Below are positions 3,112 through 40,982 of a stretch of DNA of 64,000 nucleotides, piece after piece. The notes beneath the pieces are model-generated. The model saw nothing but the letters and a program-made list of their open reading frames with translations. It did not search any database and was not told where the DNA came from. Made by a program: the position numbers and the translations under genes. The stretch is from Polytrichum commune. Its lineage: Eukaryota > Streptophyta > Polytrichopsida > Polytrichales > Polytrichaceae. Within the stretch, counting starts at the first letter, position 1; each line of letters begins with the position of its first letter. Location: contig OX485805.1 of the NCBI GenBank assembly GCA_950295325.1, forward strand, positions 57,250,758 through 57,314,757, read 5' to 3'.

Positions 3112-3135
3112 TTGTTTGCTAGGCACCACGGGCCT

Positions 3136-3146
3136 TGGCTTGGTGG
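3136..3146 (+). promoter_or_regulatory. Pol III A box of SINE family 1
   Basis: TGGCTTGGTGG fits the tRNA A-box consensus TRGCNNAGYNGG allowing the one-base-shorter form. It lies 16 bp from the SINE 5' end. Confidence 0.75.
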
Positions 3147-3178
3147 TTAGGCTCATGGCCCCCAATGAGGAGGTTGTG

Positions 3179-3189
3179 GGTTCTATTCC
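3179..3189 (+). promoter_or_regulatory. Pol III B box of SINE family 1
   Basis: GGTTCTATTCC differs at one position from the tRNA B-box consensus GGTTCRANNCC. Its spacing from the A box is normal for a tRNA-type promoter. Confidence 0.75.
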
Positions 3190-3513
3190 CCATGCCGGCG
3201 TGGTGCTCACCACCTTAGTCCACCCAACTATGGTGGGGGGTCCTTGGACCTTGTTGTATGGGTACCTCAAAGCCCTTTGGGGGGATACCATGTCCGGTAT
3301 CTTCAAGGCACTAGTGGCTAGCTAGGAACTAGTATAGTGTGTCACTATAGTGTCCATCCTCGAAAGGGGAGAGTAGTATTGTCCCAGTGTCCCCTTGTCC
3401 AGTGGCCATCGGGTTCATTGGCATTACGAACGGACACTTTATTCACGCCGGCCCCTTGTTAAAAGGGACCGGAGTTTCTCTTTCTTTCTTTCTTTCTTTC
3501 TTTCTTGTTTGCT

Positions 3514-4248
3514 TCCTCAAAGTCGAATGTGGTGTTGCTAGTTGCTTGGGTCTCCAACACTAACTCTACAATGATGCACGTGTCCCCAACAATCCGCGAA
3601 GGTAGATTCCCCAGAGAAGCTAACACCCACTTCATCCATGGTCACAAGCTTAAGAATGGAAGCAAGAAATGAAAAACCCTAAGTTGCATTAAAATCACCA
3701 TGGTCCCTAATAATTTATTGCTACAAGCACAAGAGCGATGGGAGTAACCATAGCTACACCAACTATCCAGCAATCCAAAATCAACAAAATATACAACAAA
3801 CCATTTTTGCATATGAAAACACTAAACCATGGCAAGAAATGTCGGTGAGTAACCCGGTGATGACAAGAAAAACACCTAGAAAATCCGCAATGGCCAAGAT
3901 CACCCCCAATCTAGCAAAAGACAATAAGAAATCCCAACCATAAAATCCTATATGCTTGCTTGAAAGTGCATACTTGAAACCACCTTCTATAAAGTTGTGG
4001 AAGCACCACAAACTTGTCATATCTTGCACCGCTAATGGCACCGCTAAAATGAAGTGCATGTAGTCACACCTCTGAGGTACTTCTTAACCCTTATTACCCT
4101 CTTGAACCCCTCTTGCTCACACTCCACAATGGCTAGGGGTGTTCCTCTTATGCACCAACACTCCATTGGTAGGGTTCCCTAACCATTCTACAATACCCTA
4201 TATTGCGTAGGGTAGTAGGGTATCTCCCCTACTAATACCCTCACCCTA
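3514..4248. other. Intergenic, no gene recognised
   Basis: Short open frames only, none recognisable. The right part (about 4190-4247) has a local imperfect inverted repeat built on ACCCTA/TAGGGT, next to the following MITE. Confidence 0.55.
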
Positions 4249-4249
4249 A

Positions 4250-4816
4250 GGGCCACTTCACACACAAGGTTGAAGGCCCTTGACCATGGCAATGTAAGAG
4301 CTCTCATTGGTCGAAAAGGCAGAGACCGTCCAAGTTCACTTCACGGTAGGAGGTGAAGGCCTAAAGGCCTGAAGAAAAGTTCGTGGATGAAAAGTCTACA
4401 TGGAGTCCTACATGGCAGGTTATGGATAAGGGTGCATGGTCTACCGGAATTTGCGTTAGGGCCACCTCCAAGAGGTGGGCCTGATGAAAATTCCGGTAGA
4501 CCATGATTTTAATTTTTTTTCCCCAAGATGACATATTTCAAGGCATATCCTAGGACACACAAAACACCACCAAGAAATACTCTTAAATTGATAAAGTCTG
4601 AGACATATTATTTTAAACTAAATCCTCCCCACTTTTCCCGCCAACAAAACATGCAACGGTCCCGCAACATGGTCCATTCTCACTTCACGCTATGCTTGAG
4701 GGCCCGTGACTACATAAAATGGCTTTCCCAACACCCATGGTACGGCCTTTGGATGAGAGTCAAGGATCCCTCACCAATACAAGGTCGCGGCTCTTGGCTC
4801 ATGTGTGAAGTGGCCC
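4250..4816. mobile_element. MITE family A (Tourist/PIF-Harbinger-like), copy 1
   Basis: The ends form a terminal inverted repeat: GGGCCACTTCACACACAAGG at the left and the reverse complement of GGGCCACTTCACACATGAGC at the right. The next stretch is also shared (...AGCCSTGACCATG). Flanks are TAA at the left and TAC at the right, a plausible decayed TTA/TAA 3-bp duplication. The interior matches the copies at 6001, 23543 and 42483. It is non-coding. The centre holds a perfect 18-bp hairpin (4435-4505) not seen intact in the other copies. Confidence 0.75.
4435..4505. repeat. Perfect 18-bp inverted repeat inside MITE A copy 1
   Basis: The arms CATGGTCTACCGGAATTT (4435-4452) and its exact complement (4488-4505) enclose 35 nt, which itself pairs as GGCCACCT/AGGTGGGCC. 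In the other family copies the same place has only partly matching arms, so these arms have probably been homogenised. Confidence 0.85.
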
Positions 4817-4817
4817 T

Positions 4818-5604
4818 ACGTTCCCACATACCGTTACCGTACCCCTATTTCGTACCCTCAAAACTCCTATATATTGTACCCATCCGACATTGGAAAGTAC
4901 CTCTAAATTAGTGGACATCATAAGAACGCGTGGAAGCCTATTTGGTTGTAATTCCTTTGTAAATGGACGGCAAAGATTTGGAGAGGTGACTTATGTATTG
5001 ATAACGTGTGAACATGCTCTTAATGGCATCGACTCCGATGTGCGCAATGGACAAGAGAAACGCACTGACAAGCTCGATGAGCCATGACAATATTATAAGC
5101 AAAAAGTTAGTTGTAGCCAAACTTCTAATATATATAGGGTCGTAGATTTATATATCCAACTCTAGTCAACATGGCCAAAAGGTAACCACCTTCGCTAGCT
5201 ACCAGAGTCCCACTTGTCCCTTTAAAAAGTACCACACTTGAATCTCCCACAAGGAACATGTGGGTACAAAAAACATGTCCATTAGCCGATCCTATATATT
5301 GTCCCTTCAAGCCACATTGGGATGGATGAAAGTGGGGATGCTCAACCCACAAATGCATCCATGGGCTTATGTTTGGGGTCAAAAAACGCATCCGTGCCGT
5401 GTTCAAGATTGAAGCCCTCATATGAGTTTCGTTTTGAAGGGCTCTCGAATTTTCAACGCTTCAGTTGAAGGGTTAGTTCAAATCCAAGACGTCGATCTAA
5501 GGTTTCTTATGAATTCACTTTCTAGCTCTATTTCCATAGTCAACTTGTCCAAAAAGATTGATTCAAAGGTTATAATATTATTCATTGTGTTTTCGCCTAT
5601 GCAG
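4818..5604. other. Intergenic, no gene recognised
   Basis: Only short unrelated open frames on both strands. No domain, repeat pair or RNA signature was recognised. Confidence 0.55.
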
Positions 5605-5723
5605 TGGATGAGTTTACATAGACATCACAGATCCCTAGCCATTCCCTTTCTCTCTCTCCCTTGACGATGACCCTATCAGAGTCTGATAACATGAGATTCG
5701 TGACATCTACGTAAACTCATCCA
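5605..5723. mobile_element. Small MITE, family D
   Basis: This 119-bp element has inverted ends of about 28 bp. The left end reads TGGATGAGTTTACATAGACA and the right end, read inward, TGGATGAGTTTACGTAGATG, both followed by TCAC-GATC/AATC. Related single ends occur near 5890 and around 55160-55390. No clear target-site duplication was found. Confidence 0.65.
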
Positions 5724-6000
5724 TCATGGAGGAAGGGGCTCCAATGAAAAATAAACAACCCCCCTACAAAGTTGAGGGCTGATTCATTTCAATTGAACTC
5801 CACTTGACTAATTTAAGGGCCGTGATGCAATTTATGAAGTCAGCCCATCTAAAAGTAGTCATCATGGACTATAATATAAATCACTACATTTTCACCGTTG
5901 CGGTGGATGAGACACCACAAATCTCTAGCAGAGTCCGATATGGACACATGAACTTAAATACATACTATACAACCAGATACCACCCACTAGACTTATGTTA

Positions 6001-6479
6001 GGGCCACTTCACACACGAGCCAAGAGCCGTGACCATGAAATTGTGAGAGACCAAAAGAAAGTGTCCAAAGGCCAACCCAAGACACCTCCAAAACCATGGA
6101 GTGTGGTCACGGATCCTCAAGTGTAGTGTGAAGCCACATGTGACCGGGCCCTCAACCAAGTGCTATTTCAATGATTTTCTATTCATGTGGTTCCTCACAC
6201 ATGATGAAATAGAATAAATCAACGATTGTCACCGTTCGGAGTGCCATGGTCTCCTGGTTTTGTGTTAGGCCTACCTCCACGAGGTGGTTGTTGAAAATAG
6301 TCCAAGTGACCATGAAACATGATCCATTTGATGCCATATAGGAATCCATGTAGACTTTACATCTATTTGGCATTCACATTCTTCGTTGAAGCGAACTTGG
6401 ACCGGCTCCACCTTTTCCACCAATGAGAGTACTTGAAGTGTAATGGTCACGGGCTCTCAGTCTCAAGTTTGTAGGGCCC
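6001..6479. mobile_element. MITE family A, copy 2 (opposite orientation)
   Basis: The left end is GGGCCACTTCACACACGAGC and the right end, read inward, is GGGCCCTACAAACTTGAGAC followed by TGAGAGCCCGTGACCAT. The left flank is TTA and the right flank TTG. The interior aligns in reverse with the 23543 and 42483 copies (shared blocks around the CTCATTGGTGGAAAA and CATGTTTCATGG motifs). Non-coding. Confidence 0.75.
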
Positions 6480-7140
6480 TTGGGCCCCCATGATATAACC
6501 GTAAGGTGCTAAGGCTTACTTTGGTGCTAACTACAGTTTTAAGAAATTGTCAAAAATTCCCTCAATTTCAACGTATTTGTGCCGGACTTCTTAGGGTTCA
6601 AATCCTATCCCCCATGAGCATAATATTGTTCGATTGAGTGATCAAGTTGGGTGGGGCCATAAATATGTCATGTAAGGTGCCAAAATTATACTTTACGGAT
6701 GTTTCTCAGTAAGTAGATTCAACTTGAAAAATGAGTATGATTCAGGTGAAGCTTTGTCACTGAATATTGTTAGAATGAAACGGTTGATAGCATTTGAATA
6801 ATGTTATGAGGGTGAAATCAAAGACTTATCAATAGAGTGATCACTTCCTAGTGCAGTGAAGGAAATCAAACCATTATATTTGATGTGTCATCATCTTTAG
6901 ATATTAGAAATAGGACGTCAAACGTATTTTTTCTTATTCTTTTCAAACGTAATTATCCTACCCACCATCAACCAAAGCAAGAAGCACCTTACAATAGTGC
7001 ATGAGTTGAGAGCTCAAATGTGCATTTTATAGGAGTTTGATGGTTGGATTTGACAAGCATCCATCCAAAGCTCAAACTATTGAGAGCCTAACCAATCTTT
7101 AATCTCAAAATAGTCCAAGCAAGTGTAAAGGGTCATGTTT
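6480..7140. other. Intergenic with isolated B-box-like motif
   Basis: No gene recognised. A GGTTCAAATCC motif at about 6596-6606 resembles a Pol III B box but no convincing A box precedes it. From about 6990 the sequence resembles the GAGAGCT-containing repeats to the right. Confidence 0.5.
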
Positions 7141-7365
7141 AAAAGTGAGAGATCAAGGAGGAAATCATATATCATAGTAAACAAAGAGCATTCATGAAAA
7201 GCCACATAATCGTTGAAAGTCCATTGGCATGGGGCTCATAAAACAAGGGCTTAGGATTTCGACCAAGAGCTTGTCATACTCATTCCACATAGGATCCATT
7301 AAGGGGCCATCTAAGCGTTGTAAGTCTAGTAAAAGCTTCAAGCTCTCAAGTTGAGAGCTTGTGTG
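7141..7365. repeat. Direct repeat, left copy
   Basis: This segment (AAGTGAGAGATCAAGGAGG ... CTCTCAAGTTGAGAGCT) recurs about 0.9 kb away at 8058-8257 with scattered substitutions and small indels. The pair brackets MITE family B copy 1. The right end carries GAGAGCTTG motifs that also occur in the element at 48162. Confidence 0.75.
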
Positions 7366-7506
7366 TAAGGCCCCCTTCACACTAGTGCTCGAGGTGAGAG
7401 CTTGAACTTGCAAATTTTGGGAGTTCAATATTTGGACTTGATAGGCTTTCATCCAAAGCTCAAGCTATTTAGAGCCCGACCAATCTTCAAGCTCAAAGTG
7501 GATTGA

Positions 7507-8050
7507 GCAAAGTACACCATCTATGACATTTAGTGTCACATGCGTAATAGTGCCACTTACCCTATTTTGAGGCGTATCCTAGATTACATCAATGATTAAT
7601 AACTTCACCATGAATGTCACCTCACGACACTTGGTGTTCAAGTACGCTTACTAATATCTTGGCATGAATATAGTGTTCAATAGTGTTATGAGGTGCATGC
7701 CTATGTTTCACAATGGTCTACAAGTTGACTAAAGTGTACACAAATGACACGTGCCATTAGTATGCTCAAGAATAGCCTCCTCTTGCATACTAAAATGTAA
7801 ACACATGAAACTTGCCATTAGTACACTCAAAGAAATCTTCCTCTTGCATACTGAAATGCAAGACTATCATCTAATGTATCTTGATCTACTACTCTAAATG
7901 TCATTATGTAGATATTTTTGACTTTAAGAAGTTCCTTATGTTGACTAATGGAATCATATTGGCAAGTAGCAAGCGTGACACTTGAGACCTCTAGGCATCT
8001 AGTTTAGGCCCTTCGGTGTATGTGACACTAAAATACCATAAATGGGGTAC
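7507..8050 (-). mobile_element. MITE family B, copy 1
   Basis: The inverted ends are built on ACACCATYTATGGTATTTAG followed by TGTCACAT. The interior aligns in reverse with the elements at 35697 and 51318: shared blocks include GGGCCTAGACTA/TAGATGCC, GAGGTCTCAAAGTGTCACAT and the CACTAATGNCAAGTGTC segment. Non-coding and about 0.54 kb long. Confidence 0.7.
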
Positions 8051-8057
8051 TAGTCAC

Positions 8058-8257
8058 AAAGTGAGAAATCAAGGAGGGAATGATAGTAAACAAAGAAGCA
8101 TTCATGACAAGCCAAGAACAATTGAAAGCCCATTGGCTTGGGGCCCACATAATGAGAGCTTGTCAAAGTTATTCTATATGGGATCCATCAGGGCGCCGTC
8201 TAAGTGTTGTAAGTCCGATAGAAACTACAAACTCTCAAGTTGAGAGCTCGTGTGTAA
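8058..8257. repeat. Direct repeat, right copy
   Basis: Diverged duplicate of 7141-7365. A short open frame present here is not conserved in the left copy, so it is not treated as a gene. Confidence 0.75.
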
Positions 8258-10434
8258 AGTGGATTTGAATGAACAAACATGCGTAAGAGGCATCCCCTGT
8301 AAATGAGGAGGTTCCTTACTTCAAGCTCTCAACTCCTGCACTATATCATTTATGGTATTTCTTGTCATTTGCAATTCTGTGATTGTTTGATGAGAATGTA
8401 AATTCTAAATCTAAAAAATCCACAGTGAATAGTTATAAATAGTAAATGGCATTAACTACCCTAAACAATGTAGTGTAAAAGGGGCCTAAGTTAAGTGGGG
8501 TTGAGAGAACAAGCATGTGTAAGAGGCACCCACCAATGAGAAGGTTCACTTCTTTAAGCTCTTAGCTTGAACACTACATTGTTTATGGTATTTAGTGTCG
8601 CTTACTATTTGGGATTACACAATGTTACAACTCCTTGCTCTAGACTCAATTTTTACCATGAATAATGAAATCGGAGGTTTCAACATTATAGGACATAAAT
8701 AATTTTACTCGGTGAATTATAGTCACAATAAATAGGAATACAATTAATAGTAATATATAGTTTGCATGCTAAGGTTGTGACCCTATTAACTCGTATTTAA
8801 GTAAATATTGACATATATTCAAATCTAGACCTTTGGGTTGGTTCAATCTATGGGTAGATCCGTCGATACACGTATGATATACCTAAATTTGATGGGAGGT
8901 ATGTGAATCCTTATCAATTACTTGAATGTTGGTATTAAAATACGATGGAAAAATCAAATGTCTAACTTTTGATAGTGAAAATACAATCAAAATAATTTTT
9001 ATAATATTATCATAATCAACTTTGCATATTCTATTAGGGGATTCTACCACACAATCCTATTTTTAGATCTTATGATATAGTTGAGCATGTTAAAATTTTG
9101 GACTTGCATTTTAATCCAATTTTATTTAAATATCAGTTTATTATAGGCATCATCAAGTCCACAAAAAGTCTTGGCCATGGAATAGATCATGAATCATCTC
9201 ATCTAGTTAGCAACTGTGAATTGTGTTAGATTGTCATTTGATGTTTAGGATTGGAATTGAGATGTAAAAGTTGTAAGAGGTCAAAGTGAAAATTGTCCTT
9301 CTCTTTACATGATCACATAGGCCTTCTCCTTTTGGTTAATTAAAATTGAACTTAAGATGAGATCTACATTTTCAGCACATAGTCTTGTCTCATCATAACA
9401 CATCCTTTTTGGTGTCCATTCTTCACTACTACCCACACCATATAAGGTAGTAGTGCCTTATAAGTAACATATTCCTTTTGGCAACATATTTTTTTCATCC
9501 ATAAACCGTCAAAAAGTGAGTGCAACAGTGCCATCAAGGAAGTCATTGTAAACAATGATTATCATATGTGGCATTGTGCACAAAATAGCACCACTTGGCC
9601 ATTCATAGTAACGGCGTAAGAAGGATGCAATAATGCTACAACATCAACTCTTGGCCAATCACAATGGCTAGTCGAAGATTAATCACTTAATAAGGTAATG
9701 TAAGTAGTGTTCCACAAAAAGGGGGACAACACCTTCATTTAATAGAAGACTCTCACTTGCAATAAGGCCGATTTTGTGGATGATTCTCACATGGCAATCT
9801 AGTATTAATGGATCCTCCTAGTGGATAGTAAAAGACTCATTTCTTAAATCAAGTTTGCAATTTATGTAAATTGCATATGAACTTATTTAATTTTGAATCT
9901 TTTTTCGTAGACTCTTTATAGTTTTGCGCATATGCATAAATGTCTTAAAAAAATCCACATATTTAACTTTCTTCAAATTGAATTAGTCTATGAAAATGTT
10001 GCTTTTAGGCTCAACTACCTTACCATTCAGAAAAAGGCCTCTGAGTAGGAAGATTGACCACCTAAGCTCCACATATCTTAGGTCACAACTTGCATGCAAC
10101 CTACTCCAAGGAACTAAAGGTAGAGAGGGATGGGGTTCCTACTGCATTACTCTACCCTCAATATCACCTGAAGAACAATATGAACAGTAGATGTGACCAC
10201 AACTTCCAAGACCATAACTAGTTATGCATCCAAGTGGAGGGCACTCCTAACAACTCTCTTGCGCTTTTCTGTACATGAAAATGACATTTCATCCCTAACC
10301 TAAAGTTCACATCCATGGACAAACGATTATGTCCCATATTGGGCGAACATCGAAAAAGATGTCTCATTGCTATTGCAACTCGTCATCCACTCTACTCTTG
10401 CCCGTTATGTAGTCCATAATGCTCACCTTAGTTT
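8258..10434. other. AT-rich intergenic DNA with MITE-C fragment
   Basis: No gene recognised. Around 8575-8690 one arm of MITE family C is visible (TTTATGGTATTTAGTGTC, CTTACTAT). The rest shows only short random frames. Confidence 0.5.
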
Positions 10435-11580
10435 CACACAAACAATCCAAGGTTGCCTCTAGGTAAGTTTTGTACAATAGAAGTGCCTAATTCGGTTGCT
10501 TACCTTCATTGAACAAGTTTATATTTGAGTGGTATGTGGCATGGCGCCCGAGAGGTGGACTCTTCATTGGAAACCTAAATGGTGTGTGTGGGTGACTATG
10601 CAATAAAACCCCCTATATACAAGAATTTCATAGAAAATAAATAAAATGTTTATGTACTATGGTAGGTTGGAAAATGGACTCATGTATTTATACTAAGCTT
10701 TTCAATTTAATGAGATAAATGCCTCCACTACATACACAAAATATATATCATAAAATAATTGGGCCTTTATTACATATACAAGTCATTGGAAACTATTACC
10801 ATATGACAACAATGGATGAAACTAATACATTGATCATCACTTTTTCTTCTTAACCTTAGGACCCCTTTTGTGAATATGCATTTACTTCAAAATTCTTCAC
10901 AACCTTTGTAAGTGCACATAGTAGAGAAAAACAATACCTCTCCCTTATATATACTATGTACGCTCCCTACCCCAGGGACCGGAGTTTCTATCTATCTATC
11001 TATCTATCTATCTACTATGTACGCTAATGCCTCGAATAATACCCCTTATTACACTCATGTTAATACATACATGGTATAAAGAGTCCACCCCCAAAGTATG
11101 GTGTGGCTCCAAAAATGGATGACCATTGTAAGAACGGATATCAAAAAGACATGTATTTAGAAGAGATTGGACTACATGCTCAAAAAATGATAACCATTGT
11201 AAACTTAACAATCAACATAATTAGACGGACCTGCATGACCATTTCATGAGCATGAGAATCTTCACTCCGATATTGAGTAAGATACCATAGTACCTCTACC
11301 ACTTTGGCTATTTATAAGAAAACAGTAATTGCAAATTCTATTTAAAGATTCGACAATCCCGAATTTAAAGGAAAAATCAAAATCTTTCATATCAAATTGT
11401 AAGATTTAAAGACTACAATTTCAAAAAAAAAATCGGGTTTTCCTTGAAATAGTTTAGTCAGTGCTGAAGTGGTAAAGGTACTACGGTACCCATATGAGCT
11501 CTCAGAGGAAAGCAACCACGGCCTTGATTCGGACTTGTTGATTATATCATGCTAATCGTGTGTTTTCATGTCCTCGGAGA
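10435..11580 (+). repeat. Dispersed repeat R1, copy 1
   Basis: Blocks in this segment recur in the same order and orientation at 42130-43250: GTGCCTAATTYGGTTRCTT, TTGAGTGGTATGTGG, the ATRCCAAAAGGAYATGTRTTT block, ATCAACATAATT, GAGCAYGAGAATCTTCA and GTGGGCTAGTCRG. The two copies differ by insertions: this one has extra DNA at about 10560-11120 including a SINE fragment, and the other carries a MITE. It has no recognisable coding content and the element class is unknown. Confidence 0.65.
10965..11012 (+). mobile_element. SINE family 1, severely 5'-truncated copy
   Basis: Only 48 bp of the SINE 3' end are present: part of the hairpin (CCCT, loop, AGGG-A-CCGG), GAGTTTCT and a tail of about six TATC units. 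It is flanked by a perfect 13-bp direct repeat TACTATGTACGCT at 10952-10964 and 11013-11025. This is a clean target-site duplication showing that even this fragment was inserted by target-primed reverse transcription. Confidence 0.9.
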
Positions 11581-14463: not shown

Positions 14464-14691
14464 AGCGGGGAGTTACATGTTGTCTGTAATCGTGGCTTTA
14501 TTTCTCTGAAGTGCTAGAATTCATGATTTTCTCGCGCTCGTGTGCTAAAACTATTGCCCTTCATGATACCCATACAAACTGACATGGGTAAAAGATTGCT
14601 AGTTTCATGAGCGAAACAAATTATGATACGACATATTGTTCCAGGAGTGAAAACATACGGGTAGTTTTGCCAATCTCCTTGCAGTACTCAC

Positions 14692-17820: not shown

Positions 17821-18118
17821 ATGTGCTCATGACATCTACCCCATAATTTTAGTGTCAGGTTTTGAGGGATATTTTTATTTGAGGCTCTATATTGTGTGCA
17901 AAGGCCAACTACCAAGAATGTGAATGAAACATTAATGAGTTGTTCATCCATCCATCCATGTTTTGGATGAAACTCTTAACTGCTCCAAGTTGCCACATCG
18001 CAGTTGGCTAGCGAGAATCAGTTAGAGCCACACCGTTCGTGGCCCCATTTAAGGTACATCGACATGGGTCCTAAATGGCTACTTTTCTTTTTTCTTTCTT
18101 TTTACATGCCCAATTCTA

Positions 18119-18194
18119 GATAGATAGATAGATAGAAACTCCGGTCCTCTTTCGAGGCCGGCGTGAATAGAGTGTCTGTTCGTCTTGACTAAAA
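18119..18194 (-). mobile_element. SINE family 1, 5'-truncated copy
   Basis: On the minus strand this 76-bp fragment has the shared 3' end: GAACAGACACTCTATTCACG, the hairpin CCGG-CCTC-GAAA-GAGG-A-CCGG, GAGTTTCT and about four TATC units. The 11-bp target-site duplication GCCCAATTCTA occurs at 18108-18118 and 18195-18205. The hairpin sequence differs from the full-length copy but still pairs. Confidence 0.9.
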
Positions 18195-18757
18195 GCCCAA
18201 TTCTACTACTAAGGGTATAGAACAAATCCGGCTCAACGCCGTAAGGTAGATATGAGGAAAACGGTATGAAAATAAGTTGATATGGCCAGAAAGAGTGGTT
18301 TTGTGCAATATTTTTTGAAGATGGAGTAGAGGAAATGATGAGGAATGCAAGTTGTTTCGTAATTTTATTTCCTGTAAATAATTAGTTACATTTTCTCAAA
18401 GAGGCATGTAAGTTTAAACCCCTATTTCTACACTAGAGTCTCCCTTATCTGAGGATCAAAATAATCTACTCTGCATACAAATGCACATGAAACGGTTAAC
18501 TCAATGGCACCCAAAAGTGATCGCAAGTGGTGTGAAACAACATTTGTCTAACCAATCATTGCATCCCACCTATTATTGCATCCTTCTTAGGCCACCACTT
18601 TTACAATCAACCATTTTGGGCCCACACGATAATTGTTCTACCTCCACTCCACGAGTTATTGATATTTAGTGTATGTGTTTATATTTAGTGTATTAGACAC
18701 TAAATAGGATATTTAGTGTAGTATACTCCTTGCGCAATTGTACCTGGTCCCTAGTAT

Positions 18758-19018
18758 ATAAATAAATAACCAACGTCAGGCAATCCGATGTGAAGTTGAG
18801 CCCATTGGTTCTACCTTGCTCAAGAATCCTCTTGGTGCAGGGTGGGGTTTATTGCCTACCTTGCGGTGGGTGGGCTCTTGACTTCGTACCTACCTAGCTA
18901 GTTTTAATCTGTCACGTAAAGTGAAGATTTCACAGCGGGAATCGAACCGCCGACCACTCCATTTGGAAATATATACCTCTCCACTATCACCCAGTAGTTT
19001 AGGGTCATCTTGGACCTA
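18758..19018 (-). mobile_element. SINE family 2, copy 1
   Basis: A 261-bp tRNA-derived SINE on the minus strand. The A box TAGTGGAGAGG is at 18976-18986 and the perfect B box GGTTCGATTCC at 18938-18948. The 3' end has a stem-loop (ACATCGG, ATTGC, CTGACGT) and a tail of TTTA/TTAT units. The flanking duplication GTCCCTAGTAT (11 bp) is at 18747-18757 and 19019-19029. The body is unrelated to family 1. Copies at 27436 and 62061 confirm the ends. The long plus-strand open frame starting at 19010 overlaps this element and is not credited as a gene. Confidence 0.9.
18938..18948 (-). promoter_or_regulatory. Pol III B box of SINE family 2
   Basis: GGTTCGATTCC matches the tRNA B-box consensus exactly. 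It is 27 bp from the A box (18976-18986), within the normal range. Confidence 0.85.
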
Positions 19019-19029
19019 GTCCCTAGTAT

Positions 19030-22000
19030 TATACTAGTGTGGGCACTTTATTGTAGACAAAAACTCGTTTCGCATGTTTGCAATCACAAAAGCACTTATG
19101 TCATTGTAAGTTCATTCCGGGGATGTGATACATGTGAAACTATGGAGATGAAGGCCTTGTATAAGATAGATGGACCCATTTTTGTTACATGTAAAGCAAT
19201 TCCACATAAGTTTAGTATAAGTGTGATATTGGAGCAGTTTTTCATAGGTATGGAAATTGATATCACGAGATTTCCACAAAAACGTCACAAATTATTTCCA
19301 ATTTTCAAAATTATCGTAAATTTTCAAAGACAAGGTTCTCTCCCAACCCGTATTCATAGCATAGACCTACTTATTTCCAATAATTGGGAGAAGAAAACTT
19401 CAATACAATCAATGCCGTTTACAAGGAACCCTAAAACCATGCCTTCTTGACTTGCTTTTTCCATCACGTCGTACCTGTAAAACTTCAAGGCCTTTTCCAC
19501 CATGCTAGAAAATGACAACTGCATGTGTTGAAATTTCACGGCTTTAGAGGACCCTATGTATTAAGATTTAGGGGGGGGGGTATCGGGAATGGGCTTGTCT
19601 ACCATAGAGTATAAGCAAGAACGGAATATCAATAGAATTGCCAAATAGGAGACCCTTAACAATCAAATGAGCGGTAGAAGAATATACAACATATGCACTT
19701 AGACCATCATATGTGTTATTGATGTCCATAATTGTTTTTTTAAACATGTCATACATATTGAACAAGAAAATGGCACGTATATTATTTGCCTTGCTTTCTA
19801 CAGCCCGTCTTAAACCCGTGCAGTGAATTGCAATAGTTCCGTTGTAATGACACCTTTGGTTTTAGAGCCGGGTCCACTTGTCTTCGTCATTGTGTCATTT
19901 ATAAGAGAGTGCAAAATCGCTCATTGGAGACCATGTGTTGCTTTTCAACGTCTTACCACCACAAAGAAAGCTATGAAGCTTCTCATACAGTCACTATGGG
20001 AGTTGGTGAGATGCAACTCTCAAGTGAGCAATGAGAATGGCCACCTAAGGATCCAAACGTCATAATTTACTAGTCTATTATGTCATAGGGCTAGTCAGTG
20101 GTCCTGGGCAGTAGGAGCAGTCCCTCTTGATAAGGAAGTGCACCTTTTTCCAAATTGTATTGTTGTCGATAAGGATTTTTCATTTCACTAATAGTAACTT
20201 TGTTGGATGCAATGTATTGCGGTTTCACCAATACATACAAGATAATAACTCCTATCAAGATGAAAACTCTTCCATTGGTGTGGGCCAATTGTTGGTCCTG
20301 GTGTGAGCATGGTATTAGCAAGTGTATGGAGCTGACTAATCTTGTCTTGATTAGACTTGTCACAATAGGTAGTGTCACACCTATTGTAGAGTCAAGTTAA
20401 GTATAGTAAATGACAACATACATCCCTATCCAGGGTCTTGATAATCTCTTAGTGTAATGTTATGTATGTCATCGTGTATATATATCCTCTGTTAAGTAAA
20501 CACTTGTAGTGACTCCTGTTCAGTATTCAGAACATCATCTACAAGTCATTTCACAATTTCTACTGAGTCATGTATGTGACCAGTTTCAGGTCTTAGGATA
20601 TTACCCCCAGGCTACCAGTATCCCACGAGCTTTTCAATTCATAGGCAAATATTTCTCCATACTGTGTATAGCTAATATGCAATAAGCCATACAGAGTAAT
20701 GAAACCTCACGTGGTTCTCAAGTCTGCTTAGTGAAAAAGTCTTCTATATTCAAATCTGTCTGGCCAGTTTTGTTCACAGTTGATTGATCCAATCAGCAGT
20801 GCTTGGGTATACTCATATTATTTGTACAATCAGTACAAATAATGTACCCTTTTCTTTACACATTTTTTCATATTTTTTCAGAGAGTAAAAAGGAAAAGGC
20901 AACTGTTAAGATTAACCGAATCCAACATATCTCCCCTATCTGATTATCTCTCACACGGTTAGCACTCCAACCAGGAGAATATAGATACTGATACAATGCT
21001 TGTTGTAATAATTTGTTACGTCCAGTAGCCCTTAAGACGTTTGCAAACTTATCACATATTTAATGTCTTCAACAATTTATTCTGAAGATTATTTTGTGAG
21101 TGCTCAGTACGTAAGAACATGGTACACTTAGTTTTGAGCAACATAACCCATTCAGTTTTTCCTTCATCTCCTTTCTCTTTATAGTTTCTGTCAATCTATA
21201 AAGACTCATTGACTTCGTCTTCAAGTGACCGAACTTTTACAGTAAGCAGCCCTGATGTCTGGAAAGAAGATTATTAGCAAGAATCTACAATAGAAACTCT
21301 CCGCAGTCACTGAGTGATTATATTGTGATTATTTCACCTGAAAGTCTTATATCAGTCCCAAAAACAGGTGGTAAACATTTTGTAGAGTGTTTATGTGGAG
21401 TGTGATTATCAAGAAAGATAGTACCCATCATCAATTTTCTGGGTATCACATAGAGATTTCTAGAACAATTTCTAGAAAGAATTGTGAAGGATGGACAAAT
21501 TTCTTCGGATGGTGCACCGCACTTGTAGAAGAGGTCCTCACCTGTGCCCATGCTCCCCAACATTACCAAGAAATAAGTTAGTAGAGCGTACATCAGGTGT
21601 AAGCGGACCTTCTTACTTGTTATCGATGTCAACAAGGTTATTTCACCTCCTAGGAAGTAGGTATCATTCACCATATTCAATACAAATAGTTGCATATATT
21701 GAAAAGATATATGAACATAAAATCTTGAATCAAGAATATGGTTAGATGGCTGATTATCCCATGTGACCAAGAAGTGTAGTCTTGTGAATTTTCAGAGAAT
21801 GTTCTGTGGCTACACCTTGAATTCGTCTTGCGATGAGCTAGACTTGGTCATTGTAGAGATGCACTGGGATCTTGACTTACAGTATACAGGTGAATATTTA
21901 CACAGAGTCACAGACTGAAATCACTCAGGCTTCGGACACTTCTATGGAACCGAACTCTCCTGTTGAGAGACTTGTGGTAGCATCACACAGACAGGCAGTA

Positions 22001-22194: not shown

Positions 22195-22219
22195 TAGAGA
22201 GAGAGAGAGAGAGAGAGAG
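22195..22219. repeat. (GA)n microsatellite
   Basis: About twelve GA dinucleotides. Confidence 0.95.
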
Positions 22220-22913: not shown

Positions 22914-23542
22914 ACCACTTATGGTCCAATCAATCATATTATCATAGTAGGAGAATTTGGGTGAATAAAATATTTTCAACCAACCATGTGATAACTTAGG
23001 GGAATAACTTTAGAGGATATAGGTGTTGGCAATCTTGCCAACACCTATTGAACATTTCACCTTCCAAAGGAGAAGGTAGTCTTCAAGGGGCCTCTAATTC
23101 TCGTAATGCCCAGTTCAGGATTAAATATAGACTTACACCAACTTCAAATGAAGCAACACCATACATCATGCCGGTTTCAACATTGGAGTTGTCTTTCTTT
23201 AATACTATACCCACACTAGGACCAACAAGTGGCCCATAGCTTTGGGATAGTTTTCCATCTTGATAGGAGTTCTTGTCTTGTATGCAATGAAGAGAGATGA
23301 ACTTTCCCTATCAAGAGGGACTCTTGATGATGTCAAGGAGTAACGACTGCCCCTAACGTGGCCGTGGCATAAGTGTTATAATAGCCCACCCCCACTTACT
23401 AGTGCTCGCCACCAATGAACGGTTCCTATCAACATTGGTTACATCCAATGGCTTTCAGTAGCCAAACCAACTCTAAAAATGACCCTTGATGGTAGAAGCC
23501 ATTCATTGGTTGCCCACACCACAAAGTGTGGGCATGCCTTGA
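22914..23542. other. Intergenic, no gene recognised
   Basis: No coding or repeat signature recognised. It ends at the left border of MITE A copy 3. Confidence 0.5.
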
Positions 23543-24046
23543 GGGCCACTTAACACACGAGACTGAGAGCCCGTAACCATTACACTCCAAGCACTCTCAT
23601 TGATGGAAAAAGCGGAGCTGGCCCAAGTTCAGTTCACACTACACTTGAGGGACCAACAGAGTATGTGAATGCAAGATGGATGTAAAGTGTACATGGATTC
23701 CTACATGGCATCGAATGTATCATGTTTCATAGTCACCTAGACTAATTTCTAAAACCACCTCTTGGAGATAGGCCGGCCTAACACCAAACCATGAGACCAT
23801 GGCACTCCAAACGCTCACAACCCGCTGATTTCTTCAATTTTATCATGTTTGAGGACCCACAAAAATAGAATGTCACTGAAATAGCATTTGGTTGAGAGCC
23901 CCGTCACATATGACTCCACACTACACTTGAGGGTCCGTGACCACACTACATGATTTTGGAGGTGTGTTGGGACGGCCTTTGGACACTTTCTTTTGGGCTC
24001 TCGCAACATCATGGTCACGGTTCTTGGCTTGTGCGTGAAGTGGCCC
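23543..24046. mobile_element. MITE family A, copy 3
   Basis: The left end GGGCCACTTAACACACGAGA and the right end, read inward, GGGCCACTTCACGCACAAGC are imperfect inverted repeats of about 38 bp, each followed by an AGNGCCNGTAACCAT/CCGTGACCAT block. The flanks are TGA and TAA. It is closely similar across its length to the copy at 42483. Non-coding. Confidence 0.8.
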
Positions 24047-24680
24047 TAAGGCCACTTGTCCTAGTAAGGTAGAGGGTGCTTAAACCAACACTTTAAGCTA
24101 TTGCACATACATATGGCTATATGGTTGATACATAAAATATATATTCATATTAGCCTTTGGGCTAAACATACGTACCAAGAAAGAAAAAATATTTTTAGTC
24201 TCAATTGAATATTCGATGAATATTCAAAGTCAAAACTACTAGCTTCCTTAAACCAATCCATAGGCCCCGTGTATGGTCACCTCACATATGATGAGGACCC
24301 CCACCTTCATTGCCTAGAACCAACACAACATAGTTGGGTACTAGACCCAAAGTACATCAAAGCCCAAGTAGTAATGGTACGCAAAGCCACACGGCTACCT
24401 CCACGATCCCACCCAGTTCGCTTGCAAAACCATCACCATGCATCCTGGGAACCAACCCCCTTGCATCCCGGGAAATGACCCTTTTGTGCTTTGTGGGCCT
24501 ACCTCCTTGGCGTTGTGAATAGAATGGCTAGAATAGGCATTGACAAGCCACCTTAATCCCACCTTGAACCAACCCGAGATAGAATGGAGCATGTTACCTA
24601 GCCTACATGGAGGTAGTGGAGGCCGCTATGAGGTGGCATCACTGATGGCACCTAAAACCGTCATTCCGTGAGCCTAGAGA
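24047..24680. other. Intergenic, no gene recognised
   Basis: Overlapping short frames on both strands in a moderately GC-richer stretch. No family recognised. Confidence 0.45.
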
Positions 24681-27300: not shown

Positions 27301-27435
27301 GGTTGAAGCTTAATAATGGGGTTATGGTTGCAAGGACCTAATTGTGTTATTTTTTCTATTTTAAATTGTTTTTCTATTTTTCTTTTTAAACGTGGAGCAT
27401 GTAAGATGAAAGCTTAGGCACCACAAACCATGGTA

Positions 27436-27691
27436 AATAAATAAATAACCAACGTTGGGCAATCCAACGTGATTTTGAGCATGTTGGCCCTACCCTGCTC
27501 AAGAATCCTTTTGATGCAGGGTGGGATTTATTGTCTACCTTGTAGTGGGTGGGCTCTTGGCTTTCTACCTACTTAGCTAGGTTTTCCCGTCAAGTAGAGA
27601 GAAGATTTCACAGCGGGAATCGAACCGCCAACCACTTCATTCGGAAATGGGTACCTCTCCACCATCACCTGGTAGTTTACGGTCATCTCGG
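27436..27691 (-). mobile_element. SINE family 2, copy 2
   Basis: A 256-bp minus-strand SINE with A box TGGTGGAGAGG (27654-27664) and perfect B box GGTTCGATTCC (27616-27626). The 3' stem-loop ACGTTGG-ATTGC-CCAACGT is fully paired, followed by TGG and a TTAT/TTTA tail. The flanking 16-bp direct repeat ACCACAAMCCATGGTA (one mismatch) is at 27420-27435 and 27692-27707. This copy is the best preserved of the three around the promoter. Confidence 0.92.
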
Positions 27692-27707
27692 ACCACAACC
27701 CATGGTA

Positions 27708-28500: not shown

Positions 28501-28574
28501 AAAGCACACTTCCATGCTAAAAACATGGATTTAAATTATGTCATTCAATTCGGCCACACATGGAAGTGTGCTTT
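28501..28574. repeat. Perfect 16-bp inverted repeat
   Basis: The arms AAAGCACACTTCCATG (28501-28516) and its exact complement (28559-28574) enclose a 42-nt AT-rich loop. It could be a tiny MITE or a hairpin RNA. No duplication flanks it. Confidence 0.85.
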
Positions 28575-33499: not shown

Positions 33500-33790
33500 T
33501 TGTCATGTGTCAGAGCATGTTTTGAAAGTAGGGTGAAATTCCTTGAACCTCCTCTTGCTATTTCGAAAACTTTGAGATAACTCTAGAACCTAAATAAAGG
33601 TTTTTTAATGGGATCTACGGCCTTGAATCCCATATTGGCCTATGCAAGGTTGGTTTGGCACAACACCCATCCTTGTACGACGAGCTATAAATTTAGTTTC
33701 TTTATAGCCCGACACCACTCTCTGAGCATGTTCATTTTAATTAGTTTATCAAGTACTGAGCTTGAGTTACTTTTGATGCATTATTGTTGG
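33500..33790 (+). repeat. Dispersed repeat R2, copy 2
   Basis: Counterpart of 16430-16700 in opposite orientation. A 124-codon frame starts at 33608 with ATG GGA TCT and overlaps the shared block. The corresponding frame in the other copy is also open, but no protein family is evident. Confidence 0.6.
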
Positions 33791-35065: not shown

Positions 35066-35347
35066 GGGTTGCTTTTTACACTATAGCTTGAGGGCCCTTG
35101 GCCCATGCATAGAAATTATGTGATTGATTAAGAAGTCAGCATGGATACGTGGACTGTTTATTGATATCAAGTGTCCATAAAATATGTTGTGGTTTCTCAA
35201 CATGGTCCACTTTCACTTTACACTAAGCTTGAGAGCCCATCAACTATGTAATTGGATTCTTATTTTCCACAGTACAACCTTTGGATGGTTTTCAAGGGCC
35301 CTTAGGTTTTCATGGTCAGGGGTCTTGATCCGTGTGTAGAGTGGCCC
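35066..35347. mobile_element. MITE family A, short copy with intact TTA duplication
   Basis: A 282-bp element whose left end GGGTTGCTTTTTACACTATA and right end, read inward, GGGCCACTCTACACACGGAT are family A termini. Exact TTA triplets flank it at 35063-35065 and 35348-35350. This is the duplication expected of PIF/Harbinger (Tourist) MITEs and the best evidence for the family's class. Confidence 0.78.
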
Positions 35348-35696
35348 TTAGTAACCTCACTTGGATAGTATGTATGAATCAAAGACCCCTACATTCACAT
35401 ATTAAAATTTGAGATTACTTCCAGGTTTGAAAAACAAAAGACAAACGGAACATTGATGTTCATATTTACATTGACTTGGGATATCCATTCACCATCTCCT
35501 ACACATGGCCACATGGACATGGGAGAATGTCATGGTCATGATAGATACACTCACCTTATTCCACTTGAGTCTTTTAAAAGTATAAGATTTTCAACAATAC
35601 GATTGCCTAGTACACTGCATTTAATTACATTATACGACGTGTCACTCAAAGAAGAACGTACCTGACTAATAATAAACACATGGGCAACACTAACGG
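35348..35696. other. Intergenic, no gene recognised
   Basis: A short stretch between two MITEs. A 70-codon plus-strand frame is unrecognised. Confidence 0.45.
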
Positions 35697-36175
35697 CCAC
35701 TTTACACTATACCATTTTTATGGTACTTACGGAATTTGCAAAGGGCCTAGACTATGTAGATGCCTAGAGGTCTCAAAGTGTCACATCTACTCAATATGAT
35801 ACTATTCGTCAACATAAGTAGCCATCTAAAGTGAACATATTTATATTATGACATTTAGCGTAGCACATTGGAATGTTTGAGGTGATAAGTCTGCACTTTA
35901 TTATGCAAGAGAAAGATATTTTCTTTGCATACTAGTGCCAAGTGTCAATTGTGTACACTTTGGTCATATTGCAGGCCATTGTGTAACATATGCATACACC
36001 TAAGAACATTGTTGAACTTACTCGTGTTGCCAAGATATTTGTATGCACATTTGAGCGCCAAATATCATGAGGTGACACTAACGGTGAAGTTGTCGATCAT
36101 TATTGTAACATAGCATATGCCTCAAATTAGGGTAAGTGACACTATTATGCACTATCATAAACAATGTAGACCTCG
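35697..36175 (+). mobile_element. MITE family B, copy 2
   Basis: Aligned with 51318-51900 in the same orientation. Shared blocks are GAAGGGCCTA/AAAGGGCCTAGACTA, GATGCCTAGAGGTCTCAAAG, TCACAT...AATATGATACTAT, CATATGCATACACCT-like text, and GGGTAAGTGACACTATTA near the right end. The ends are less conserved than in copy 3. Non-coding. Confidence 0.65.
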
Positions 36176-36975
36176 AGGGCCTTAACCGATGATATACACA
36201 TTACGTGATTGGTCTAGAAGTCGAAGACTATCCAAGTTCGCTTTACACTAGACCTTGAAGGCCTTAGGGACAAAATAAATTTGATGTCGTACATGGCACC
36301 AATTGGATGATGTTTTATGGCCTACTAGATACGGTGTTAGGCCTATAAAAAAAAAGGCAAGTCTAATGTAAAATTATATTGTTTATAAGTATTATTGTGG
36401 CCCACTATAAACTTGTCATACCACAATAATTTTGTCAGTGTAACTTGTCTTAATCCACACCATTCTTGATTCCACAATATTATGTGTTCAAAATTAGGAA
36501 TGTGGGATCAATGTTTTCTACACAAACATGAAATATTGTGGAGTGAAAATATAATATCAAATCTATAATGTTATTGCAAATTTTTATGGATTTTAAATTT
36601 GAAAAAAAAACATTATTGATTTACAAGCCACCCTAATTTTCAACCCACACATAAAATACGGTGGGCCATGATATTTTCTACCTACGCAAATTTTCAACCC
36701 TTAGTACTAGGTGTAAACGGTGCAGTGCCCATGGCAAACATTATGATTGTCATTGGCACCTTAAAATAGTACATTTCCCTCATGGGGTCGCGGACTTCCT
36801 AAGATATTGGATTGTTCATAAATATGTTGCATATCCTCAACATGGTCCACTTTCACTTTACAGTGTGCTCAAAGGGCCCCTCAGTTGCAAGATTGGGTGT
36901 TTATTTCTCATGATACAACCTTGGATGATTCTTATTTCATGGTCAAGGCTTTTGGTCTGTGTGTAGAGAGGCCCT
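36176..36975. mobile_element. MITE family A-related long or composite copy
   Basis: The left part (CTTGAAGGCCTTAGG, CATGGCACCAATTGGATGAT) and the right part (TGGTCCACTTTCACTTTACA, GTGTGTAGAGAGGCCCT) match family A sequences. The middle is unrelated AT-rich DNA, suggesting an insertion or a longer family member. The boundaries are approximate, and the element abuts MITE B copy 2. Confidence 0.5.
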
Positions 36976-39900
36976 CATGATGGGTTTACATTGTGGTATG
37001 GGTCAACCTCCCCTCCCACCCCCCCCCTCCTCTTTATCTTTGAAAAGTAGTAGGTTTGGCTACATGCTAAGTTTAGAAGCAATCAAGGTGGCAAGCATAG
37101 GATTTTTTGTGGAGTTTAGGGTGGCTACAGTTAGATGAATTAAAGGGAGTATTTGGTGAATGCACATAACCTATGTATCAATTTGGGTACGTGGTGACTT
37201 CTAATTGTACATGAAAGAAATCCAAGGCTACATGTGTGCTCTGATAAGGTGAACAATGGCCCCATGTATAAAATAATAAGTGGCCCTAGATCTATATTCA
37301 CAATCTACAAGTGGCCACACACACCACAAACTAAGGGGGAAGTTGGCTACGTATTGAAAGTGGCTACAAAAACAAAATTAAATACAAATAAAATTGCAGT
37401 AGCCCCTTAAACCTCTTGAGGTTTCCAAGCTCAACTAGCTTGCAAATGTACGAGAGGATCAACATGGACATATCATACATTTCAAACGCTTAGCAACATC
37501 TTAGGCCAACTAGTGTTGCACCAACTCTCTTAATAGCAATGTGCACTTAAATTGCACCAATTTGCACACATAGAAGATGATCAACATAGAAACATCCTGC
37601 ACTTGAAGTACCTAATGCATTTCTACACTCAAAAACATAGGACCAACCCACTTAAACAATAGCGCATCCAAAATGAACAACATTGCTTAAAAACCCACTC
37701 ATACAATCACACATACAAGTACAAATAGGTAGGTTGGCGCCTTCAAGCACCACCAATGTGTTCCACTCCGAAACTCGAAATTTGGTGCCCAATTTTCTTA
37801 AAACTCCACTACAATCACAAGGTGGCGCCACTAATTGCCACTACATGAATGAAGAGGCTACAAGGTACAAGTTGAAAGAGCAAGAGGGTGGCGACCATAG
37901 GGGTGGAGAATGGATGAGAAAGCAACAACTCCACTCAGCCCACCCAACTAAACCCTAGGCGACACGAGCCCTTGGATGGGAGGACAAACTCCATCTATAG
38001 CTCACAGTGGGGCTCATTTGGCTACTCTCAATAACGAAGCTCAGAGGCGGGTCTTAATTTTTAGGCAACTCCATTCCACCCATGTGAAGCTAGTTGGCGC
38101 CACCTCCTACCCACAAAGAGTAGAGGTGGTACCTTCAATGGCAAAAATATAATTTTTTTAAAGATGTCTGTGTAAATCGATTACTTCATTGTAGCAAAGT
38201 GGGTACTAGTAATTGGAAACAAAAGGGTTGGTCCAAGTCCAAGGAACTTGGGCTCCAAAACATCCCTTGAATGGACCTTACTTTCAAACTCAATATATGA
38301 ACCCATGCTTAAAGAATGGTTCCTCAAACTTTAAGGAGAGCATTTTCTTGAGTGGGGACTGCTGTGATTTGATAGGAAAGTGATGCCACATTGGTGCCAC
38401 CTCATTTTTTTCATACATTGGACCCAAACACAAGTGTAGACTCCTTGGGTCAAATGTTGTGCTCATGACCAACATGATCATTCGATTTTAGAGTTTCTTT
38501 GGTCTTGGACCTTGGTGTAAATCCACCCTAAGTATATAGGTCAGCTCTTGAATGTAGTTTCTATATGCCATGGACATGAATTTTTGATACATTGCTAGAA
38601 GTTGGTGTTTGTATATAGTAACATGTACATGTAAAATGGATCGACCACAATATTGGAAATCTCCAAAACTCATCACAAAAACACAAGGATAGAGTTTGCT
38701 TCATCTGGCAGGCCATCATTTTTGGATCTTTGGTGTTAAGTATTTGACCCAACAATTTTGGCCCAAATATTTAGATTAAATTTTACACAATGAAATTGCC
38801 AAATTCTTCCATATTGATGTCTCCCAATGAGGATGAAGTACTAAAATCTCTCTCTCTCTCAAGGTGCATTCCTTGCTTGCCACATCACATATCATTTGCT
38901 ACTTAAGGCTCCTTTTATACTATTAGTCATTTTGCAAGTATGTGTTTTCTTTTTAATATGTAAAATGACCTCACGATTATGACTCATGGCTACATAAGGT
39001 ACATGGGTCTCAAATGGTTACTTTTTCCGACTAGCCCACTATCTATCACTTGCTGCATATCCATGGATATGTAGCAAGTGATTAGTAAGATATCATTGCT
39101 AAATTGGTGTCATTGCCACTTTCCTTACAGGTTCAAGAACTTATGTATTTCTTAAACATTATGAATGTGAAGATTTGTGTGTTCATTAATCAATCATATA
39201 TGTCCTTCCATTACTTTGACTTTTGAATCTAAAACAAAGATCATATTTTGAGCGTGCAATGCTTTCTCTTTTAAACACAAGTATTTTTTAATATTCATTT
39301 TTGGAGACACAAAAAACCACACAACACTCAAGTACAAGCGTCTGATCAAGATAAGTAACCAAATTAGACACGCATGCCTTACATAAACAAGTCCAATAAC
39401 ATATTGCTCTTAAACCTTCCAATATTTGCTTGTTTTCAAGTAAGATTGGTTTCTTACTTCAATTTCTTATTTGGCAAGACATGCCAAAGAATTTCACATT
39501 ATTCTTATTTGATCCAAAATATATTTATTCACAAATGTTGGGTCCATAACAACCTAGCATGCATATGAGTAACATTATGGTATAGCTTTGGACCATCACC
39601 AAAGTAGACCACATACAAAGAAACTCTTCATTTATGCTTTGCTTCCTCAAGATGCACAACATATATCACATGGTCTTTGCCAATACTTCTCTTCCACTAT
39701 ATGCTTATTAAAATTTACTCCTTTCTTGATTATGAAACTATATAGTGGAAAAGAACAAATGGTAGACCATACAATTCATGTATTGATGTTAGTGTATTTC
39801 AATTTTATTTTTTCTTGTGTAGCTTTGAAAGGGTGAATGTGAGGGGTGAATGTTCACAACACCTATTGAGGGGGAGGGCATACCACAACAACTCAGGGGG

Positions 39901-40886
39901 ATCACACCCCCTTACATTTTGTAACCACGTACGATAATGGGGTATTTAATGGGGGGATATTTATGCACATCTCAATATTTTTATCCCTCCCTATTTGTAG
40001 ATATAAAACTACTTTGACGTACTTTTTAGCACCCTATATCTATTTGTCATTGTTTATAGAGGCTGTTTTTGACAACGTTTCTTTTATAAATCTTATAAGT
40101 ACCAAATAATGGACATAATACTATAGCATTGCAAAATCAACTATGTGAGCAACAAATGTTCCATACCATCCATCTTGTCATTCAATCGGTTTCAATTAGT
40201 TATACCAATGCTAAACCATTCAAAGTCTCATTCAAAACACAACCAATAGCACTTGAATACTAGTCTAAAGGTTACCAATAAACATGTAGATAACAAAATG
40301 TACAAGCTAGCATAGACAAGTTGTAAACGTGGATAAAACAAAACAAGAATTACAATCAATTGTCACAAGACATGAAATTTTGCACAACTATATACTTCAA
40401 GAAAAAAATATAGTACCTTGAAAGTTAACTCATTATCTTCATACATTTGAAAAGTTGAATACATGCTTATTACTTCAACCATCCAATGCTCATTTATAAA
40501 TGACATCTTTGAATGAAGCAAGAGAATTTCATAGATTAAATAACACCTACTAACTTAGAAAACATTTTCTACAACAATCATTCATAATTTGTACACTAGA
40601 CAAAAAAAAAAAGTTATTTTGTGGTATGAGTATGAGGTCACAACGAATATCCTACATCGCTATCAATTTCATGTAGATTTTTCAACAAACTCATTCAAGG
40701 AGTTCTCATCAACCGGATCAAGCTCAATGACAACCTTCTCTACATCAAATGACATAGTCACTGTGCAAATTATGCTATCTTCATCAATCCAAATAAAATC
40801 CGAGTGGTCATATTTGAATTTGAAGTGTCCATGAATTTTTCTAAAATAATTAAGAAAGACCATAAAACCGATTCCGACAATACTTG
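36976..40886. other. Intergenic, no gene recognised
   Basis: No recognisable gene. Around 38990-39040 there is a fragment (GGGCTAGTCGGAAAAAGTAA, on the minus strand) shared with the right end of repeat R1 and with about 18040-18075. A 64-codon minus-strand frame at 40669-40863 is unrecognised. Confidence 0.45.
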
Positions 40887-40897
40887 TTTGTTTACCT

Positions 40898-40982
40898 ACC
40901 AGGGCATCGGGTCATTGACATTACGAACGGACACTTTATTCACGCCGGCCCCTTGCTAAAAAGGGACCGGAGTTTCTATCAA
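40898..40982 (+). mobile_element. SINE family 1, 5'-truncated copy
   Basis: This 85-bp 3' fragment (ATTACGAACGGACACTTTAT ... hairpin CCGG-CCCCTT, loop, AAGGG-A-CCGG, GAGTTTCTATCAA) is almost identical to the end of the full-length copy at 3121 apart from its near-absent tail. The 11-bp target-site duplication TTTGTTTACCT lies at 40887-40897 and 40983-40993. Confidence 0.9.

What the first reader, a model, noticed from the sequence alone, without database searches (positions are those of the whole stretch)
3121..40982. SINE family 1: one full-length tRNA-derived copy and three 5'-truncated copies, each with target-site duplications
The copies at 3121-3504, 10965-11012, 18119-18194 and 40898-40982 share one 3' end but have different 5' break points. 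They are flanked by exact repeats of 9, 13, 11 and 11 bp. Heavy 5' truncation with variable duplications is the signature of LINE-driven target-primed reverse transcription, and is seen less often for SINEs than for LINEs. The tail unit also varies: (TTTC)n, (TATC)n or nearly none. I do not recognise the body as a known plant SINE.
Basis: partly seen in the sequence, partly recalled or inferred. Interest (0 to 1): 0.72.

Follow-up and report, generated by a model that had tools for sequence, protein, structure and literature searches.

The report
Plant SINE sharing a retroelement tail
A plant genome carries one short "jumping" tRNA-like element and three tiny fragments with the same tail, which look like ordinary products of a LINE-type copying enzyme that recognises a small RNA hairpin; the fragments may come from that enzyme's own gene rather than from the short element.

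Summary
Four copies share one 3' end, have different 5' break points and are flanked by exact duplications of 9, 13, 11 and 11 bp. A covariance-model scan finds these four and no convincing fifth. The 384-bp copy has A- and B-box-like motifs in the right place (15 of 4000 model sequences score as high) but matches no tRNA model. The three short copies hold only 48-85 nt of this tail, so they may equally be 5'-truncated copies of the partner LINE; "truncated SINEs" is not shown. c3 differs from c1 more than duplication pairs differ, which suggests more than one source. A second SINE family of the same design (hairpin plus TTTA repeat; three near-full-length copies) lies in the window. No LINE reverse transcriptase was recognised in the window. 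The genome search did not complete in 15 tries, so copy number, partner LINE and organism are unknown. Verdict: probably an unnamed plant SINE of known kind.

The parts
3112..3120 (.). 5' target-site duplication of copy 1 (TTGTTTGCT)
   Evidence: exact match with 3505-3513
3121..3504 (+). copy 1 (c1): full-length SINE, 384 bp
   Evidence: bounded by the exact duplication; A/B boxes near the 5' end, hairpin and repeat at the 3' end
3137..3146 (+). A-box-like motif GGCTTGGTGG (7 of 8 fixed positions)
3179..3189 (+). B-box-like motif GGTTCTATTCC (8 of 9 fixed positions)
3445..3475 (+). 3' hairpin of copy 1 (-15.7 kcal/mol)
3479..3506 (+). (TCTT)7 tail, overlapping the 3' duplication by two bases
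3505..3513 (.). 3' target-site duplication of copy 1
10952..10964 (.). 5' duplication of copy 2 (13 bp)
10965..11012 (+). copy 2 (c2): 48 nt, starts at the base of the upper stem of the hairpin (5' arm of the outer stem absent), (TATC)n tail
11013..11025 (.). 3' duplication of copy 2
18108..18118 (.). duplication of copy 3 on its 3' side (11 bp)
18119..18194 (-). copy 3 (c3): 76 nt of 3' end, hairpin with GAAA loop, (TATC)n tail
18195..18205 (.). duplication of copy 3 on its 5' side (11 bp)
40887..40897 (.). 5' duplication of copy 4 (11 bp)
40898..40982 (+). copy 4 (c4): 85 nt of 3' end, hairpin nearly as in copy 1, repeat tail nearly absent
40983..40993 (.). 3' duplication of copy 4

Best explanation
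These are non-LTR retroposon insertions made by a LINE enzyme of the stringent type. Inferred steps: RNA polymerase III transcribes the 384-bp SINE from its internal A and B boxes; the reverse transcriptase of a partner LINE binds the hairpin next to the RNA 3' end; the target is nicked; the 4-nt repeat tail pairs with the nicked end and primes copying; copying stops early or runs to the 5' end; staggered cleavage leaves 9-13 bp duplications. Shown here: shared 3' end, conserved hairpin, repeat tails, duplications, variable 5' ends, box-like head. The long copy is a SINE. The three short copies are truncated products of elements with this tail, either the partner LINE or SINE subfamilies, and come from at least two and probably three source lineages.
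For: Exact duplications on 4 of 4 copies. Hairpin ACGCCGG...CCGGAGT in c1, c4 and c3; the upper stem appears as CCCTT/AAGGG (c1, c4), CCTC-GAAA-GAGG (c3) and CCCT-ACCCC-AGGG (c2); shuffles of each upper hairpin are as stable in 2, 3, 0 and 5 of 5000 for c1, c4, c3 and c2. Named structure on three rows: 93.3% of cells paired against 16.7-56.7% when slid by 1-3 columns, one pair with a change on both sides. Box score in the first 100 nt: reached by 15 of 4000 model sequences. Sources: c1 and c3 differ at 6 of 48 body sites, duplication pairs at 0 of 44 (Fisher p 0.017). A second family of the same design in the window. Stringent LINE proteins of zebrafish bind such stem-loops (PMC4176376, abstract).
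Against: No QGxPxSP-type RT motif in the window (0 hits; the looser YxDD pattern gave 13 scattered hits, none beside it; motifs recalled), and none of 17 stop-to-stop ORFs of 110 aa or more looks like an RT by inspection, so the partner is hypothetical. The box score is not unique at window scale: 8 of 20 model windows (one strand) hold such a pair, and 4 pairs in the real window that belong to neither SINE family score as high. No tRNA match. The head occurs once in the window, so it is not shown to be repeated. The covariation count alone is not significant (reached by 168 of 500 shuffles). c1 and c4 do not differ significantly (1 of 52, p 0.54). The copies' duplications were recognised by exact match, which biases the comparison of divergences.
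Confidence: 0.78

Rival explanations
1. One reading: one SINE family, with the three short copies being 5'-truncated copies of the same SINE.
For: c4 matches c1 over nearly its whole length (93.5% over 77 columns; 1 difference in 52 body sites). All share the 3' end and have duplications.
Against: c2 and c3 carry other hairpin versions, and c3 differs from c1 at 6 of 48 sites. In the second SINE family of the window 0 of 3 detected copies are reduced to a 3' stub.
Confidence: 0.4
2. At least one of the short copies is a 5'-truncated copy of the partner LINE, and only copy 1 is surely a SINE.
For: Short copies hold only the part SINEs can share with LINEs; most LINE copies are 5'-truncated (PMC3747384, passages).
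Against: No LINE recognised in the window. No short copy reaches far enough 5' to show LINE-only sequence.
Confidence: 0.55
3. Copy 1 is not a SINE but a LINE-derived or other non-autonomous element whose A/B boxes are chance matches.
For: No tRNA model match; head seen once; box pairs of equal score occur in 8 of 20 model windows.
Against: The boxes sit at the 5' end of an element whose boundary is fixed by the duplication (15 of 4000). Longest open stretch is 67 codons.
Confidence: 0.12
4. Chance: unrelated simple repeats with accidental flanking repeats.
For: c2 alone is weak against the model (E 0.096).
Against: E values down to 2.6e-26; duplications on 4 of 4 copies.
Confidence: 0.01

Closest known systems
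Tobacco TS SINE and its RTE-clade partner LINE (PMC3747384, passages)
   Same: tRNA-derived plant SINE; last ~100 nt shared with a LINE; short-unit repeat tail instead of poly(A)
   Different: TS ends in TTG repeats; here (TATC)n or (TTTC)n. The partner LINE was not found here. Sequences not compared: no TS sequence was at hand.
Maize ZmSINE2/ZmSINE3 with LINE1-1_ZM (PMC3747384, passages)
   Same: conserved 3' hairpin with compensatory stem changes
   Different: those tails are listed as poly(T) or poly(A), and the partner is an L1-clade LINE. The conserved CGAG 3' of the stem reported there is not seen here; here AGTTTC follows the CCGG arm. Sequences not compared.
Sauria SINE / Bov-B and plant RTE insertion signature (PMC13295347, passages)
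   Same: repeat tail whose letters match the first letters of the duplication (here TT with TTTC, TA with TATC, in the 3 copies that have a long tail)
   Different: the T stretch about 10 nt upstream of the duplication is not seen (no run of three T in -13 to -7 in 4 of 4 copies)
Chlamydomonas SINEX-2 (PMC3747384, Tables 1 and 2 as shown)
   Same: 4-nt repeat tail (CTTT)n, the same unit as in copy 1; LINE-related 3' end
   Different: promoter listed as unknown there; RandI-type partner; a green alga. Sequences not compared.

Membership tests
tRNA-derived SINE | internal A and B boxes near the 5' end | tested here: met
   A 7 of 8, B 8 of 9 fixed positions; 15 of 4000 model sequences of 100 nt reach the score; but 8 of 20 model windows hold such a pair somewhere. 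Box consensus recalled.
tRNA-derived SINE | head recognisable as tRNA | tested here: not met
   ARAGORN 0 genes; Rfam 0 at gathering score; no tRNA match among 3 matches up to E 10 in 3110-3520. Drifted SINE heads often fail this (recalled).
tRNA-derived SINE | flanking target-site duplications | tested here: met
   4 of 4 copies with the tail, including the 1 copy with the head
tRNA-derived SINE | no coding capacity, no internal Pol III terminator | tested here: inconclusive
   longest open stretch 67 codons; no TTTT in 358 nt, but 1350 of 5000 model sequences also lack it
tRNA-derived SINE | dispersed multi-copy element including the head | tested here: inconclusive
   head occurs once in 64 kb; genome search unanswered in 15 tries
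stringent-type SINE/LINE pair | conserved 3' hairpin plus short repeat tail | tested here: met
   upper stem in 4 of 4 copies, outer stem in 3 of 4, c2 being cut short; pairing drops when slid, covariation count not significant; tails
stringent-type SINE/LINE pair | a LINE with the same 3' end in the genome | not tested
RTE-clade (Tn-TA) insertion signature | duplication begins with T; T stretch about 10 nt upstream | tested here: not met
   first letter T in 4 of 4, but no T stretch at -13 to -7 in 4 of 4
L1-type plant SINE with poly(A) tail | poly(A) tail; target of the TTTT/AA type (recalled) | tested here: not met
   tails are TTTC/TATC; duplications begin TT, TA, TA, TT

The most novel reading that the evidence does not exclude
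The repeat unit of the tail is set at the target: the copy landing on TT carries TTTC and the two landing on TA carry TATC, so pairing between the nicked target and the RNA end would choose, or rewrite by slippage, the tail. Two hairpin SINE families without detectable similarity (TATC/TTTC and TTTA tails) in one plant genome would then mean two stringent LINE lineages at work side by side, where the review passages seen name only three flowering-plant SINE/LINE pairs.
Probability: 0.12. Interest if true: 0.55.

Novelty: new member of a known kind. Interest (0 to 1): 0.33.

Why it matters
Plant SINE/LINE pairs are few: the 2013 review names three in flowering plants (PMC3747384, passages), and a table in a 2022 review calls tRNA SINEs mainly found in angiosperms (PMC9033089, passage). 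Two hairpin-tailed families in one 64-kb plant window give a direct way to look for the partner LINEs and to test stem and loop recognition in plants. The organism was not identified, so the taxonomic weight is open.

Tried and rejected

Searches elsewhere: 3'-end patterns in viral contigs gave 0 matches. Plasmids gave no match with the 384-bp copy. The one match in genome contigs (Roseovarius) does not continue into the hairpin or tail and was rejected as chance.

The first hairpin register (model R1) was out of register and paired only 44.8% of cells; it was replaced. R1 was not used for any search.

A second Fisher figure, based on 9 of 66 mismatches, mixed tail differences in and used a wrong denominator (the blastn row has 55 identical of 70 columns). 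It is not used; the 6 of 48 count is.

The fold of the whole element is more stable than shuffles (z -2.78; 1 of 100 as stable), but no tRNA cloverleaf was recognised in it; it is not used as evidence.

Papers: the listings of searches (6 of 6, 2 of 2, 20 of 22, 15 of 151, 20 of 35, 4 of 4, 12 of 56 and 10 of 26 papers shown) hold no title or abstract start that describes this family or fern or moss SINE families of this design. PMC11490119 was looked at by passages only. SINEBase and Repbase were not available. Two papers looked up by id are not held.

Full report
What was checked. The four copies, their shared 3' end, their different 5' ends and their exact flanking duplications of 9, 13, 11 and 11 bp are all in the sequence as stated. 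Random placements with the same spacing reach those duplication lengths in 27, 16, 15 and 13 of 3000 cases, so four out of four is far from chance. blastn of the long copy returns the other three; the rest of its hits are a TTTC simple repeat or have E of 0.069 and above. A covariance model of the 3' end built from c1, c4 and c3 recovers c2 at E 0.096; the next match, at E 0.64, is a reverse-strand match to c1's own hairpin. c2 is therefore the weakest copy by similarity, but it has the longest duplication, shares GGACCGGAGTTTCT with all the others, and shares 31 identical bases (tail included) with c3.

Anatomy of the long copy. It starts at 3121, just after the duplication. An A-box-like motif lies at 3137-3146 and a B-box-like motif at 3179-3189, each one mismatch from the (recalled) consensus used. 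Only 15 of 4000 model sequences of 100 nt reach that combined score. At the scale of the whole window such pairs are not rare: 8 of 20 model windows, scanned on one strand, hold one, and in the real window four pairs that belong to neither SINE family score as high. No tRNA gene or tRNA model matches. There is no sizeable open frame: the longest open stretch is 67 codons. The most economical reading is a tRNA-type SINE head that has drifted.

c1, c4 and c3 share an outer stem (ACGCCGG with CCGGAGT, with small bulges) and differ in the inner part: CCCTT/AAGGG in c1 and c4, CCTC-GAAA-GAGG in c3. c2, which lacks the 5' arm of the outer stem, has a third inner version, CCCT-ACCCC-AGGG. Shuffles of each inner hairpin are as stable in at most 5 of 5000. 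With three aligned rows the formal covariation count is weak (one pair changed on both sides, reached by 168 of 500 shuffles), but sliding the partner by 1-3 columns drops pairing from 93.3% to 16.7-56.7%. The 5' break of c2 lies at the base of the inner stem. The hairpin runs into AGTTTC and a 4-nt repeat. Stringent-type LINE proteins of zebrafish bind such a stem-loop (PMC4176376, abstract), and one L1 lineage of grasses has one with compensatory changes (PMC3747384, passages).

What the short copies are. They contain only 48, 76 and 85 nt, tail included. This is within the stretch that SINEs can share with partner LINEs (about 100 nt in tobacco TS; PMC3747384, passages), and most LINE copies are 5'-truncated (same source). 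Sequence in the window cannot tell a truncated SINE from a truncated LINE. The hairpin versions, and the 6 of 48 body differences between c1 and c3 against 0 of 44 between duplication pairs (p 0.017), indicate more than one source lineage; the duplications were recognised by exact match, which biases this test. c4 is close to c1 (1 of 52, p 0.54) and may well be the same lineage. In the window the QGxPxSP-type RT motif has 0 hits and a loose YxDD pattern 13 scattered ones (motifs recalled), and none of 17 stop-to-stop ORFs of 110 aa or more resembles a reverse transcriptase by inspection. No profile search for RT was run over the window, so degraded LINE pieces could have escaped.

Target and tail. 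In element orientation all four duplications begin with T. In the three copies with a long tail the first two bases of the duplication continue the tail (TT after TTTC in c1, TA after TATC in c2 and c3). The product of window dinucleotide frequencies is 0.0005, but a match can arise in more than one way, so the true chance is several times higher, and c4 does not show it. [quoted passage not shown] The T stretch about 10 nt upstream that marks plant RTE insertions in that paper is absent in 4 of 4. The clade of the partner LINE is left open.

A second family. On the minus strand at 18754, 27433 and 62069 lie three copies of about 260 bp with a B box GGTTCGATTCC (GGTTCGTTTCC in one), a 3' hairpin with one compensated pair (reached by 162 of 500 shuffles) and a TTTA repeat tail. 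Two of three have duplications of 7 bp or more (11 and 8 bp). A model of its 3' end finds no further copy in the window (next match E 0.34). Family 1 has 3 of 4 stubs, family 2 has 0 of 3: a hint, with very small numbers, that the stubs of family 1 come from something other than a SINE.

Limits. The genome search did not answer in 15 tries, and no plant collection was at hand. Two SAUR genes (Pfam PF02519) point to a land plant; the species is unknown. Whether the family is already in Repbase or SINEBase could not be tested.

Noticed in passing
18754-19030, 27433-27705, 62069-62325 (minus strand): Second tRNA-type SINE family, about 260 bp, 3' hairpin with a compensated pair and TTTA repeat tail; exact duplications of 11 and 8 bp on the first two, none of 7 bp or more found on the third.
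   Followed up: partly
5998-6480, 23535-24054, 42482-42983: About 500-bp repeat, 82-85% alike, with terminal inverted repeats containing AGGGCCACTT in the last two copies: a MITE-like DNA element.
   Followed up: partly
7516-8049, 51356-51888, 35734-36151: Second MITE-like family; inverted ends of 24 nt (92%) at 51359-51382/51865-51888, and a 61-bp tandem repeat at 7728-7858 in one copy.
   Followed up: no
45196-45732 (+) and 53448-53924 (-): Two SAUR (auxin-responsive) genes, Pfam PF02519 at E 7.5e-28 and 6.1e-26: the window looks like land plant DNA.
   Followed up: partly
63215-63414: Minisatellite with a unit of about 40 bp, about 5 copies.
   Followed up: no
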